From positions 232,501-296,500 of the forward strand of contig NZ_CP042264.1 in NCBI RefSeq assembly GCF_007855645.1: 64,000 nucleotides of DNA, in the 5' to 3' direction. The DNA is from Qingshengfaniella alkalisoli. GTDB taxonomy: Bacteria; Pseudomonadota; Alphaproteobacteria; Rhodobacterales; Rhodobacteraceae. A program made the translations under genes and the position numbers. Each line of letters begins with the position of its first letter. Position 1 is the first letter of the stretch. Below the pieces are notes generated by a model. It was not told the origin of the DNA. It saw nothing but the letters and a program-made list of their open reading frames with translations, and did not search any database. Positions 45,943-50,117 of this stretch are shown here, piece by piece.

Positions 45943-46632
45943 ATGGGTCTGGTTCTGCGTCAAACCATGGCTGTCGCATTGGCCGCAATGCTATTCGGTG
46001 CCACCGGTATCGTCCCGCTTTCTGCAGACACGCCACGCACCGGACTGATGTGGAACCGAAGTGGCTTGCCCGCCGCCTTCCCACTGCAGGTCAAGACACC
46101 GTCCGGGCAGAACTATTTCCTGGTCCTGCGCGACGCCGAGAATGACCGGCAGGCATTGGCGGCCTATATCAATGGTGGTGAATTTTTCAAAGTCCTCGTC
46201 CCTCCCGGCCGCTTCACTCTTCAATTTGCTATCGGCCAGGAATGGCAGGGTGAGGACACGTTGTTCGGACCGGACGCGCAGACCCGCTTTGTTGAACTGG
46301 GTCCGCCGCTGACTTTCAAGACCCGTGGTATAGGAACAAAGGCCGGGCATATCGTCGAAATCCTCAGGGCGGATCCAGAGAAACCCCTGCAAATTTCCAT
46401 CAGGGAGCAGGCGATCTGCCAGACAGTGCTGCCGCCCGTTCCATCGCCCGATGCGCGTGATCTAGCCATTCCTTATGAATACACCCATCGGCCATCGACA
46501 CGCCGAATCCGTCCTGTCGCTCGACCGAGCTTTGCGGATGATCCGCTCGCGGATCGCCCTGCCGATGCTGACCGCACTGCCTATCGCTATACCGCGCCGG
46601 GATATGAATTGTATTCGAACTATTGCGACTGA
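45943..46632 (+). CDS. Secreted protein of unknown function
   Basis: The protein of 229 residues begins with a signal peptide (MGLVLRQTMAVALAAMLFG..., cleavage after PLSADT) and has no motif I recognise. It contains aromatic-rich beta-like segments (FFKVLVPPGRFTLQFAIGQ) and an Arg/Pro-rich tail. I chose ATG 45943 because AGGAGG lies just upstream. It sits between the P450 gene and the small exported protein that precedes the ExbB/ExbD operon; a shared role is suspected but not shown. Confidence 0.6.
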   Translation: MGLVLRQTMAVALAAMLFGATGIVPLSADTPRTGLMWNRSGLPAAFPLQVKTPSGQNYFLVLRDAENDRQALAAYINGGEFFKVLVPPGRFTLQFAIGQEWQGEDTLFGPDAQTRFVELGPPLTFKTRGIGTKAGHIVEILRADPEKPLQISIREQAICQTVLPPVPSPDARDLAIPYEYTHRPSTRRIRPVARPSFADDPLADRPADADRTAYRYTAPGYELYSNYCD

Positions 46633-46727
46633 TCTCCTACGCAACGCTTGACCCAAGGGCGGGTACCTTGCCTAGAATAAGCCGCGACGAGACGCGCACA
46701 ATGTTTGCGCAACGGGGAGGACGAGTT

Positions 46728-47165
46728 TTGCGAATACGATCTGCTTTCCGATTTTCTGGCGCAATGATCGCCGTAAGCGCGCTGGCACAAGCCGCGATGG
46801 CGCAGAGCACGGACGGGCGACTGTCCATAGAGTTGAACAAGTTCGAAGAAACCGATGACGGCGCGTGTCAGGCGTATTTCCTGTTTGGCAACGACACGGG
46901 ACTGGGGCTGGAAAGCTTCGAGCTGTCATTGGCCATACTTGACAGCCAAGGCGTCATCGACAGCCTGCTGACCATCGACGCGTCACCTCTGCCACCGGCG
47001 CGAACCACGCTGAAGCTTTTTGCGATCCCCGAGATTTCTTGCAGCGACATTTCCGAGATACTTCTGCACGACATCCCTGCGTGCAAGCCGCAAAACGCGG
47101 ACCCACTGGACTGCTTCGACTTGGTCGATCTGGACAGCAAAGCCTCCGCGCCACTGGTGAAATAG
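46728..47165 (+). CDS. Small exported protein upstream of the ExbB/ExbD operon
   Basis: The product of about 145 residues has a signal peptide ending AQAAMAQSTDG and a mature domain with paired cysteines (DGACQAYF, EISCSDIS, PACKPQNADPLDCFD). I know no function. GGGGAGG lies 7 bases before a TTG at 46728, the best initiation signal; an in-frame ATG at 46701 has a poorer site. Its stop is 3 bp before exbB, so it is the first gene of that operon. Its cysteines suggest a disulfide-stabilised periplasmic domain. Confidence 0.65.
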   Translation: MRIRSAFRFSGAMIAVSALAQAAMAQSTDGRLSIELNKFEETDDGACQAYFLFGNDTGLGLESFELSLAILDSQGVIDSLLTIDASPLPPARTTLKLFAIPEISCSDISEILLHDIPACKPQNADPLDCFDLVDLDSKASAPLVK

Positions 47166-47168
47166 GTC

Positions 47169-47795
47169 ATGCTGAATTTGTCCGACCTGATGCGCGGCGG
47201 CCCCATCATTGCTGTTCTGGCAGTGTTGTCCGTGGTTTCCGTCGCCCTGATCGTTGTCAAAGCCATCGAATTGCGGGGCGTGACATCCGGCACGGGCCGT
47301 CGCAGCGCGGCTGTGGATCATTGGCGCAAAGGTGAAACGCGCGAAGCTGTCAACCTGACCCAATCCGGGACGGCCCCTGCGGACCGCGTCCTTCTGGCCG
47401 CAATGGAAGGCATGTCCCGCGACACCAGCCCCGCATTGCTGGAAACGGATCTTGTACGGCGTGGCAACGAAGAACTCGAACGCATGAACCGGCATATCAG
47501 GCTTCTGGAACTGATCGCCATGATCAGCCCCCTTCTTGGTTTGCTCGGCACCGTGCTGGGAATGATCCAGTCGTTTCAACAATTGGAACTGGCGCAAGGT
47601 TCCGCCAATGCCGCTGTGCTGGCCGGAGGCATCTGGCAGGCGCTGCTGACCACGGCGGCGGGTCTTCTGGTTGCCATTCCAGCCGCTATCGGCGCCTCGC
47701 TCCTCAGTTCTCGTGCGGAAAGCGCGGGGCATCTGATCGAAAGCTCTGTGGGTGCGCTGATGTTGGCCGAGGACGCCCGCCACCGCCGCGACTAG
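47169..47795 (+). CDS. exbB: MotA/TolQ/ExbB proton channel subunit
   Basis: The 208-residue inner-membrane protein has three transmembrane segments: about residues 12-32, 112-137 and 155-180, the last two flanking the conserved ISPLLGLLGTVLGMIQSF and TTAAGLLVAIPAAIG regions that line the proton path. It forms a pentameric ring around an ExbD dimer and uses the proton motive force. It is followed after 15 bp by two exbD genes. Confidence 0.88.
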   Translation: MLNLSDLMRGGPIIAVLAVLSVVSVALIVVKAIELRGVTSGTGRRSAAVDHWRKGETREAVNLTQSGTAPADRVLLAAMEGMSRDTSPALLETDLVRRGNEELERMNRHIRLLELIAMISPLLGLLGTVLGMIQSFQQLELAQGSANAAVLAGGIWQALLTTAAGLLVAIPAAIGASLLSSRAESAGHLIESSVGALMLAEDARHRRD

Positions 47796-47810
47796 CCGGA
47801 GCACACCATC

Positions 47811-48233
47811 ATGCAACTCAGACAACCAAGGCCGCTGAGACCCTTGATTTCGCTGGTTCCATTGATCGACGTAATGCTGATCTTGCTGGTGTTTTTCATG
47901 GTGACCTCGACCTTCCTGGATCTGGATATGTTTCCCACCGTAGGCGGGAACGACCTACAGACAAGCCGTTCGGAAGCCACCGATCAGGTCAACCTCACAC
48001 CTGTTCTGCTGCGGCTGAACAGCAACGGGCGTGTGACGACACAAGGGCGCAGCTACGACGTCAACGAGCTCGGCGAAATCCTGGCCCTGCGCCTGAGCGA
48101 GGTTCCCGCTACCGAAATTCTTCTGCTGCCCTCGCCCGCCGCGTCGCTACAAAGCCTGATCGACGTGATGGACCGCGTGACGCAGGTTGGTGCGCAGAAC
48201 CTGCGGGTTATTCGGCTGGAGGCGCGTCAATGA
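47811..48233 (+). CDS. exbD: ExbD-type proton channel subunit (first copy)
   Basis: The 140-residue protein has one N-terminal transmembrane segment, SLVPLIDVMLILLVFFMVT, with the essential proton-carrying aspartate, and a periplasmic domain (TEILLLPSPAASLQSLIDVMDRV). It overlaps the next exbD gene by 4 bp (ATGA). Confidence 0.88.
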   Translation: MQLRQPRPLRPLISLVPLIDVMLILLVFFMVTSTFLDLDMFPTVGGNDLQTSRSEATDQVNLTPVLLRLNSNGRVTTQGRSYDVNELGEILALRLSEVPATEILLLPSPAASLQSLIDVMDRVTQVGAQNLRVIRLEARQ

Positions 48234-48634
48234 AACTACGCGCGCAAACGCGGCGGCCCCACCACGAAACCATCATCGCGCTGATCGATGTGGTGTTTTT
48301 CCTTCTGGTTTTCTTCATGCTGATCGGCCGCATGGAAGCGACCGCCCCGTTTGATGTCGTCCCTCCAATCGCCCAGACCGGCTCGGATCTTCCCGCCGGC
48401 GGGTTGGCAATATCCGTGGACAATGACGGTGCGTTGGCGTTGGGTGACACACTAGTCGAACACGATGCACTTCTGGCCCATGTCGCCGAAGCTATTACAC
48501 ATCAACCGGACAAACTGATCAGGGTCACGGCAAACGGCTCAACCCGGCTGCAACAGGTGCTGCCTCTTGTCGCCGAAATCGAAGCGCTTGGCGCGAAGGA
48601 GGTGGCGCTCGTCGTAACGCCCGACCCGACATGA
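48230..48634 (+). CDS. exbD: ExbD-type proton channel subunit (second copy)
   Basis: The 134-residue protein has the segment IIALIDVVFFLLVFFMLIG with the conserved aspartate and a divergent periplasmic domain. It is only distantly similar to the copy before it, so the pair may form a heterodimer. It overlaps the next gene by 4 bp. Confidence 0.88.
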   Translation: MKLRAQTRRPHHETIIALIDVVFFLLVFFMLIGRMEATAPFDVVPPIAQTGSDLPAGGLAISVDNDGALALGDTLVEHDALLAHVAEAITHQPDKLIRVTANGSTRLQQVLPLVAEIEALGAKEVALVVTPDPT

Positions 48635-50055
48635 AGACACGGCTGTGGATCATCGGGCTCGCATGTTCCGCAGGGTTGCACGCGCTGGCACTCGGTGGGC
48701 TGCGACTGTCCACCGACCCAGCCGAGATAATGCCTCAAACCGTATCTGCCAGCCGCCTAGATGTGACCGCTTACGAGGTAGATCAGGCGAATGCGACGCC
48801 ACAACAGGTGGATAGCCCAACGAAGGAAGGGGTTGTTCCAGATCAGTCACGGGTTCAGGGCACCTCCATTCAGCGTATAATAGCTGCCGAGACCGTTCTC
48901 CGATCAACCGACGCTGCAGAGGTCATTTCTCGGCATGCAGCGGCATCTTCTGTCAAGCCTCGCAGCAAGGTCACCCATAACGTTCGGTTGGACAGCGCCT
49001 TGGCGCAACCCATTGGACAACCCGCGTCACGCACCAAAGCGACCGCCCCGGCGACCGTAGTAGCCAATACCCAAGCAATCCCTACCAAACGATCGCCCAC
49101 GGCGACACTTCCCACTCAACGCGCCCAGGAAACACCCCGAGAAACCTCAATTCCAAGCGCGCCGCAAACCGTCACAGCGGTGTCAGCTACAGCGCTGCGT
49201 CCTGCCGCCCTGAACCAGGCCCCGGCGGCTTTACCGTCCGAAACCTTGGTCGCGTCCCTTGCCTGGAGCGGCGATGCCAGCCTGGACCCTGTTTCATTTG
49301 CGGCCGTTACGTCCTTCATGGCCCCCAACCTACCGCAGACCGGTACTGATCCGGTGCGTGACGGGATGGAGGGTCTGCTGTCCTCCGTTCCCTGCGCACG
49401 CTTGCAAGCCGTGTTCGAGCCGGACAGCGGGTCAATTCTCTTGACCGGGCATGTCCCTGAGGAGGCACTTCTAACACCCGTCACAGACAGCTTGCAGCAG
49501 TTGCTGGGCGGCGCGATCCCGGTGCGCGACTCGGTGCGTGTCCTGCCGCCCCCGCAATGCGGTGTGCTACGTGCTGTTTCAACCGTCGGTCTACCGCAAT
49601 CGACGGATCAGTTCACCGACAGCCGGTTGATCGGTCAAACTGCGCAAGCTCGGGAATACTTCTACAATGGCGGAGACAGGCTCAGCTTCGATCTGACCGG
49701 CCCGGACTACGATGCGTATCTCTATGTCGACTATTTCGACGCTTCCGGTCAAGTAATCCATCTCGAGCCGAACACACAGGTGCCGCTACGCCAGCTATCC
49801 TCTGATCAAGAGGCAACAATTGGCGCGCCATCCGCGAACCACCCGTCGTTGGAGATTTCCATCGGCCCGCCTTATGGTCAGGAAATCGCACTCGCCATCG
49901 CGACCTCCGTGCCACTGCATGACGGCACACGACCGATGGTAGAACCCGCCGATCCCTACCTCGACTTTCTGCGCGAGCGCGTCGCTGTTCTTCGCACAGA
50001 ACAACCTGATTTTAAAGGAGAATGGGTCTATTTCTTCCTGACCACGCGTCCATGA
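48631..50055 (+). CDS. TonB-like anchored periplasmic protein with BON-like and DUF4384-like domains
   Basis: The 474-residue protein starts with a TonB-like membrane anchor (residues 5-24) and an extended Pro/Thr/Ala/Gln-rich linker (about 30-210). It has no TonB C-terminal domain. Instead residues about 254-308 look BON-like (ARLQAVFEPDSGSILLTGHV), bracketed by C255 and C310, and residues 343-470 look like DUF4384 (FYNGGDRLSFDLTGPDYDAYLYVDYFD, QEIALAIATS). It is coupled by overlap to the two exbD genes, so it is presumably the part moved by the motor. Function unknown; domain calls are by eye. Confidence 0.7.
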   Translation: MKTRLWIIGLACSAGLHALALGGLRLSTDPAEIMPQTVSASRLDVTAYEVDQANATPQQVDSPTKEGVVPDQSRVQGTSIQRIIAAETVLRSTDAAEVISRHAAASSVKPRSKVTHNVRLDSALAQPIGQPASRTKATAPATVVANTQAIPTKRSPTATLPTQRAQETPRETSIPSAPQTVTAVSATALRPAALNQAPAALPSETLVASLAWSGDASLDPVSFAAVTSFMAPNLPQTGTDPVRDGMEGLLSSVPCARLQAVFEPDSGSILLTGHVPEEALLTPVTDSLQQLLGGAIPVRDSVRVLPPPQCGVLRAVSTVGLPQSTDQFTDSRLIGQTAQAREYFYNGGDRLSFDLTGPDYDAYLYVDYFDASGQVIHLEPNTQVPLRQLSSDQEATIGAPSANHPSLEISIGPPYGQEIALAIATSVPLHDGTRPMVEPADPYLDFLRERVAVLRTEQPDFKGEWVYFFLTTRP

Positions 50056-50076: not shown

Positions 50077-50117
50077 ATAAAAGCCCCGGAGTTCGGTATG
50101 AACTCCGGGGCTTTTAT
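50077..50117. terminator. Strong bidirectional terminator between the ExbB operon and ptsN
   Basis: An 18-bp perfect stem (50077-50094 with 50100-50117) ends in AAAAGCCCC/GGGGCTTTT with a five-base loop. It separates two convergent operons and has the A/T runs needed to act both ways. Confidence 0.93.

What the first reader, a model, noticed from the sequence alone, without database searches (positions are those of the whole stretch)
45943..50055. Proton-driven ExbB-ExbD-ExbD motor linked to a TonB-like protein ending in a DUF4384-like domain
Five genes from 46728 are packed with 3-15 bp gaps or 4-bp overlaps: a small exported cysteine protein, ExbB, two different ExbDs, and a protein with a TonB-like anchor and linker but no TonB C-terminal domain. 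In its place are a BON-like and a DUF4384-like segment. A further secreted protein lies just upstream. No TonB-dependent receptor gene is nearby. This looks like a motor that moves an unusual periplasmic arm, possibly acting on peptidoglycan or an exported partner; that role is inference.
Basis: partly seen in the sequence, partly recalled or inferred. Interest (0 to 1): 0.65.

Follow-up and report, generated by a model that had tools for sequence, protein, structure and literature searches.

The report
Proton motor tied to T6SS weapon
Five linked genes encode a proton-powered motor and a TonB-like arm that, in every sampled relative carrying them, come with a type VI secretion system, and the arm's tip is the same kind of domain as the sensor of that weapon's controlling kinase, which suggests that membrane energy helps to control or anchor the weapon.

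Summary
46728-50055 encodes a small exported cysteine protein, ExbB, two ExbDs and a TonB-like protein ending in DUF4384 (E=1e-9) after a BON-like segment, without TonB_C. The gene upstream (45943-46632) is not part of it. It is in 31 of 295 family genomes, all among the 71 with TssC; 26 of 31 lie within 11 kb of tssC, though not in the window's own genome. The arm tip is homologous to the periplasmic sensor of the T6SS kinase (hhalign E=1.4e-14), and 31 of 31 have that kinase. A second T6SS lineage has an analogous module whose different tip matches its own kinases (E=4e-19). Modules and the outer-membrane lipoprotein TssJ nearly exclude each other (1 of 71 genomes has both, 8 neither; kinship not corrected). 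Best reading: a proton-driven arm that works with the T6SS kinase, perhaps in place of TssJ. Shown: anatomy, linkage, homology. Inferred: function.

The parts
46728..47165 (+). small exported protein (145 aa; TTG start with GGAGG upstream) with four invariant cysteines; weak paralogues open other ExbB-ExbD operons of the family
   Evidence: C47, C105, C119, C129 in 32 of 32; paralogues; no Pfam family for the window protein
47169..47795 (+). ExbB/TolQ-like proton channel
   Evidence: PF01618 E=2.9e-30; T128, T161, T162 in 32 of 32
47811..48233 (+). first ExbD/TolR-like subunit, proton-site Asp kept
   Evidence: PF02472 E=3.8e-19; D20 in 32 of 32
48230..48634 (+). second ExbD/TolR-like subunit, proton-site Asp kept
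   Evidence: PF02472 E=8e-17; D20 in 32 of 32
48631..50055 (+). TonB-like arm (474 aa): inner-membrane anchor, long linker, BON-like plus DUF4384 tip
48631..48723 (+). anchor helix of the arm with the TonB/TolA-type S-x3-H motif (S13, H17)
   Evidence: S13 in 32 of 32, H17 in 30 of 32 (Asn in L036 and L088)
49348..49581 (+). BON-like domain of the arm, carrying two conserved cysteines (C255, C310)
   Evidence: C255 32 of 32, C310 31 of 32 (one row, L094, is cut by a contig end)
49663..49911 (+). DUF4384 domain of the arm
   Evidence: PF14326 E=1e-9; in 31 of 31 homologues
50079..50115 (+). terminator-like hairpin after the last gene; its T run lies in the 3' arm
   Evidence: folded, -29.8 kcal/mol; function not tested

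Best explanation
The five genes encode a proton-motive-force-driven ExbB-ExbD motor that actuates a TonB-like periplasmic arm dedicated to the type VI secretion system. The arm is anchored next to the motor by a TonB/TolA-type helix and crosses the periplasm on a long linker. It ends in a BON-DUF4384 tip of the same family as the periplasmic sensor of the T6SS Ser/Thr kinase (PpkA-like). The most likely working: arm tip and kinase sensor bind the same envelope partner, or each other; motor strokes load or release that contact, so that proton energy and envelope state gate the kinase, which licenses T6SS assembly by phosphorylating Fha or TssL. Shown: gene set, motor residues, tip homology to the kinase sensor, co-occurrence with T6SS and with the kinase. 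Inferred: that the motor is active, that the tip contacts the kinase or its ligand, and that the output is control of T6SS.
For: Module in 31 of 295 family genomes, all among the 71 with TssC (hypergeometric 1.5e-22, not corrected for kinship). 26 of 31 within 11 kb of tssC (in three of them measured from the small-protein gene, the module being split by contig ends) and 2 more within 5 kb of the kinase. Annotated plasmids show it beside tssA-H and a caspase gene in Ruegeria conchae and Leisingera caerulea, and in the same region as tssK, tssL, tssM, tagF, phosphatase and kinase in strain SC52. Kinase with this sensor in 31 of 31 module genomes. Arm tip vs kinase sensor: hhalign 98.3%, E=1.4e-14; reversed-sequence control 0.8%. 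A second module in another T6SS lineage has a tip with no detectable likeness to the first (0.8%) that matches the kinases of its own loci (99.1%, E=4e-19). Motor and S-x3-H residues conserved.
Against: No experiment. In the window's own genome the module is on another contig than tssC and the kinase, as in G205; in G093 it is 0.7 Mb away. The kinase occurs without the module in 6 of 11 further T6SS genomes tested (29 of the 71 TssC genomes were not tested). The arm tip is closer to kinase sensors of other alphaproteobacteria, and of G121 in the same family, than to its present partner kinase, so direct partnership is not read off the sequences. The whole tip could not be modelled (pLDDT 45.7).
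Confidence: 0.55

Rival explanations
1. The module replaces TssJ: the motor-driven arm is the outer-membrane-facing anchor or pulling element of the TssM-TssL complex in T6SSs that have lost the TssJ lipoprotein. Signalling is secondary.
For: TssJ (PF12790) in 14 of 71 TssC genomes, an arm module (A 31, B 19) in 50; both in 1, TssJ only 13, module only 49, neither 8; Fisher p=4e-8. Roseobacter T6SS1 clusters are reported to have all core genes except tssJ (PMC9515649, passages). On the TssC tree (70 rows) module and TssJ go opposite ways in 1 to 4 of 5 independent pairs, 3.5 on average, and never the same way.
Against: Kinship: the sign test on independent pairs reaches only p=0.125, and that tree is a quick one with long branches. 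G031 has TssJ and the module in one cluster. Eight genomes have neither. TssJ is a divergent lipoprotein and may be missed by one family model.
Confidence: 0.25
2. The module is a TolA-like envelope helper used during T6SS assembly or firing, acting on peptidoglycan or outer membrane and not on the kinase.
For: BON-type segment (best structural matches include CdsD, DolP and YscD, all under Z 8); TssL with an OmpA-type domain, an OmpA-family protein and an M15 peptidase gene lie in the T6SS region of the same genome.
Against: The tip is shared with T6SS kinase sensors in two lineages, which a general envelope role does not predict.
Confidence: 0.12
3. It is a nutrient-uptake TonB system with an odd transducer, beside T6SS by descent only.
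For: The gene order (small Cys protein, ExbB, ExbD, ExbD, transducer) is that of the genome's own TonB operon, which lies beside a receptor-like gene (L125; receptor by reading).
Against: No TonB_C, no receptor seen nearby, all 31 module genomes have TssC, tip shared with T6SS kinases.
Confidence: 0.04

Closest known systems
ExbB-ExbD-TonB and TolQ-TolR-TolA force transducers
   Same: ExbB and ExbD families, proton-site residues, S-x3-H anchor motif, long periplasmic linker, one operon
   Different: C-terminal part is BON-DUF4384, not TonB_C or TolA; linked to T6SS, not to receptors or Pal
vWA force transducers (PMC12204202; section 8 read, other passages by term search)
   Same: SHLS-type anchor, disordered linker, non-TonB end, motor with a pair of different TolR-like genes
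   Different: the end domain there is von Willebrand A; the terms 'type VI' and 'DUF4384' do not occur in its text
PpkA-type T6SS kinase pathway with its envelope inputs (TagQRST in Pseudomonas, RtkS in Serratia, TssW in Acidovorax; PMC10482370 and PMC12607579, passages)
   Same: periplasmic or outer-membrane partners act on the T6SS kinase
   Different: in the passages seen none is an ExbBD-driven arm or carries the kinase's own sensor domain; 'ExbB' occurs in neither text
TssJ (SciN) outer-membrane lipoprotein of T6SS
   Same: possible position: nearly every T6SS genome sampled has at most one of the two (1 of 71 has both)
   Different: the arm is inner-membrane anchored and motor-linked; no TssJ domain in it

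Membership tests
ExbB-ExbD proton motors | MotA/TolQ/ExbB and ExbD/TolR domains | tested here: met
   PF01618 and PF02472 over cut-offs
ExbB-ExbD proton motors | ExbD proton-site Asp and ExbB pore threonines | tested here: met
   D20 of both ExbDs and T128, T161, T162 of ExbB in 32 of 32; equivalence to the known sites judged by eye
ExbB-ExbD proton motors | 5:2 complex and proton flow | not testable with these tools
   needs biochemistry
TonB/TolA transducers | anchor helix with S-x3-H | tested here: met
   S 32 of 32, H 30 of 32
TonB/TolA transducers | TonB_C or TolA C-terminal domain | tested here: not met
   no hit at E<=1; own-genome TonB hits at 9.6e-11
TonB/TolA transducers | binding of a TonB-dependent receptor or Pal | not testable with these tools
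   no receptor gene seen nearby
T6SS-associated module | occurs only with a T6SS | tested here: met
   31 of 31 module genomes of the 295 sampled have TssC
T6SS-associated module | lies in the T6SS cluster | tested here: inconclusive
   26 of 31 within 11 kb of tssC, but not in the window's own genome
T6SS-associated module | needed for T6SS activity | not testable with these tools
   needs a deletion strain
T6SS PpkA-type kinase sensor (BON-DUF4384) | arm tip homologous to the kinase periplasmic domain | tested here: met
   hhalign 98.3%, E=1.4e-14; reversed control 0.8%
vWA force transducers | von Willebrand A end domain | tested here: not met
   DUF4384 in 31 of 31, no vWA among the Pfam hits at E<=10
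BON domain proteins | BON domain in the 49348-49581 segment | tested here: met
   modest: PF21923 in 25 of 31 members at E<=10, best 1.7e-4, not the window protein alone; YscD profile hit E=3.7e-4; segment model with BON-like order. Foldseek gave no match at E<=0.001 and structural Z values are 6-7, below what stands alone

The most novel reading that the evidence does not exclude
T6SSs of this bacterial family have exchanged the passive TssJ anchor for a proton-driven arm that carries a kinase-sensor domain, so the weapon is mechanically energised and triggered through the envelope by the proton gradient: a dedicated rotary-type motor as part of a T6SS, found with two tips without detectable likeness, each matching the kinases of its own lineage.
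Probability: 0.25. Interest if true: 0.9.

Novelty: new variant of a known kind. Interest (0 to 1): 0.72.

Why it matters
How T6SS is triggered and how TssJ-less T6SSs meet the outer membrane are open questions. A motor-driven arm that shares the kinase's sensor domain would give T6SS an energy input from the proton gradient and make both questions testable by simple deletions and point mutants (ExbD Asp, arm His). In ten searches of the open-access library I saw in the listings no paper describing an ExbBD module in T6SS or a DUF4384 transducer. Several listings were capped (30 of 109, 15 of 35, 10 of 16), and subscription papers and preprints are not held there.

Tried and rejected
The upstream gene 45943-46632 as part of the module: rejected, no homologue in the 28 other loci with the full gene set searched. 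Four of the 35 hits (G121, G161, G196, G239) are kinases, not arms, by reading and by the absence of a close small-protein homologue, and were dropped from the arm count. For module B, of 24 profile hits 19 were counted as arms: 16 were seen with ExbB and two ExbDs (in G158 the arm runs off its contig), and 3 (G056, G146, G165) were counted from an arm hit and a small-protein hit on one contig. Not counted: G004, G120, G130 and G272 (weak hits; G120 keeps only the small protein and G272's region only the kinase in the stretches seen) and G028, where fragments of arm or kinase and small protein lie on short contigs; G028 is the only one of the 24 without TssC and may be a counter-example (86% complete). 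An ExbB glutamate-to-glutamine change that looked special is not conserved and was dropped. Arm A tips group with kinase sensors of other alphaproteobacteria and not with the present partner kinase (quick tree with long branches; the G121 kinase, which matches the arm best, was missed by the script and is not in the tree). Full-tip structure: unusable, not searched. Outside the family: among 347 class genomes 8 besides the window's own had a hit to the arm; G344, G625 and G424 are kinases by reading, the other 5 were not examined; arm B gave one genome of the same family and two weak hits. The first hhalign run held one wrong reading frame (L122) and was repeated; results agree. Of the 12 kinases A used there, two (G196, G239) come from genomes without module A, and of the 14 kinases B one (G246) from a genome with neither module. 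Gene starts were picked nearest to the preceding stop, so overlap counts lean towards tight packing. The TssC tree lacks G165.
Full report
1. What is there. Pfam gives ExbB, ExbD, ExbD and DUF4384; there is no TonB_C at E<=1, while the same library finds TonB_C in the genome's own TonB. Among 31 homologues of the tip, DUF4384 is found in 31 and, at the loose limit E<=10, BON_like in 25 (best 1.7e-4); the profile's best solved chain is the periplasmic part of YscD (E=3.7e-4). A model of the BON segment from two sequences has the expected order of elements. Foldseek gives no match at E<=0.001; CdsD, DolP and YscD are among the best, at Z values too low to stand alone. The whole tip could not be modelled. 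A strong hairpin follows the last gene.

2. The unit is conserved. The window, 27 other family genomes, one named contig and three plasmids carry the five genes in the same order (32 loci); three more genomes are broken by contig ends. In these 32 the arm's S13 is in 32 and H17 in 30; the Asp of both ExbDs, three ExbB threonines and four cysteines of the small protein are in 32. The gene at 45943-46632 does not travel with them.

3. The unit belongs with type VI secretion. P0006 finds 35 of 295 family genomes; 31 are arms, and the same 31 have a close homologue of the small protein (E<1e-38). TssC is in 71 of the same 295, and all 31 are among them. In 26 of 31 the module (arm or small-protein gene) is 2.4-10.7 kb from tssC, in 2 more it is 4-5 kb from the kinase; in G000 (the window's genome), G093 and G205 it is elsewhere. 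Annotated plasmids show the same neighbourhood: beside tssA-H and a caspase gene in Ruegeria conchae and Leisingera caerulea, and with caspase and OmpA genes, kinase, phosphatase, TagF, TssM, TssL and TssK in strain SC52. The window's genome has on contig C3 TssM, TssL (with OmpA domain), VgrG, a ClpV-like ATPase, TssF, TagJ (ImpE), TssC, a caspase, a PP2C phosphatase, an M15 peptidase and the kinase, but the motor is on C4.

4. The tip is a kinase-sensor domain. The arm tip aligns with the periplasmic part of the T6SS Ser/Thr kinase (hhalign 98.3%, E=1.4e-14; reversed control 0.8%; 31 arms and 12 kinases). This kinase is in 31 of 31 module genomes, and in 6 of 11 other T6SS genomes tested (42 of 71 TssC genomes examined). 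A second T6SS lineage has its own module: small protein, ExbB, ExbD, ExbD, arm, with the kinase next door in opposite orientation in 13 of 16 loci seen. Its tip has no detectable likeness to the first (0.8%) but matches the kinases of its own loci (99.1%, E=4e-19; 9 of 19 arms and 14 kinases used). Nineteen genomes were counted as carrying this second form, all with TssC; a possible further one, G028, has no TssC in an incomplete assembly. A tree places the first tip nearer to kinase sensors of other alphaproteobacteria than to its present partner, so the tip probably came from a kinase, but the tree is weak.

5. TssJ. Of the 71 TssC genomes 14 have TssJ. One has TssJ and a module, 13 TssJ only, 49 a module only, 8 neither (Fisher p=4e-8). 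Kinship weakens this: on the TssC tree only five independent pairs exist, of which 1 to 4 (3.5 on average) go opposite ways and none the same way (sign test 0.125). G031 has both in one cluster. The absence of tssJ from roseobacter T6SS1 clusters is in print (PMC9515649, passages); ExbB and ExbD do not occur in that text (term counts).

6. Reading. A proton-driven ExbBD motor moving an arm with a kinase-sensor tip, in service of T6SS, is the best explanation. That the arm gates the kinase, or stands in for TssJ, is inference. Known kinase inputs are outer-membrane, periplasmic or transporter-like proteins (TagQRST, RtkS, TssW; PMC10482370 and PMC12607579, passages); in the passages seen none is an ExbBD-driven arm. 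Recently proposed vWA transducers show that ExbBD-type motors may carry other end domains (PMC12204202, section 8). The motif name SHLS and its role come from that paper's passages. The roles of the ExbD Asp and ExbB threonines in proton flow are established knowledge; the Asp-threonine contact is also described in that paper's section 8.

Noticed in passing
L118-L124, L127, L165, L168-L174 (second module) and L125:8862-9610 (own TonB operon): The first ExbD keeps the proton-site Asp (16 of 16 second-module loci), but the second has Asn in its place in 14 of 16 (in 2 the second ExbD was not matched by the pattern), as in the genome's own TonB operon; the window's module keeps Asp in both. This suggests ExbD heterodimers with a single proton site.
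   Followed up: partly
G000 contig C3, L106:2-3451: TssB-TssC fusion sheath protein of 1150 aa beside normal TssB and TssC; known in roseobacters as TssCL (PMC9515649, passages).
   Followed up: yes
L106:16207-18261, L036:12419-13981, plasmids: Caspase-family genes sit beside the T6SS and the module; the two scanned also have Sel1 repeats. Function unknown.
   Followed up: no
L117:9859-10200 (G120): A lone homologue of the small cysteine protein beside T6SS genes, with no ExbB or arm in the stretch seen: a possible remnant of the second module.
   Followed up: no
window 45943-46632: Exported protein of 229 aa without a Pfam or NCBIfam hit at E<=1 and without a homologue beside the module elsewhere.
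   Followed up: partly
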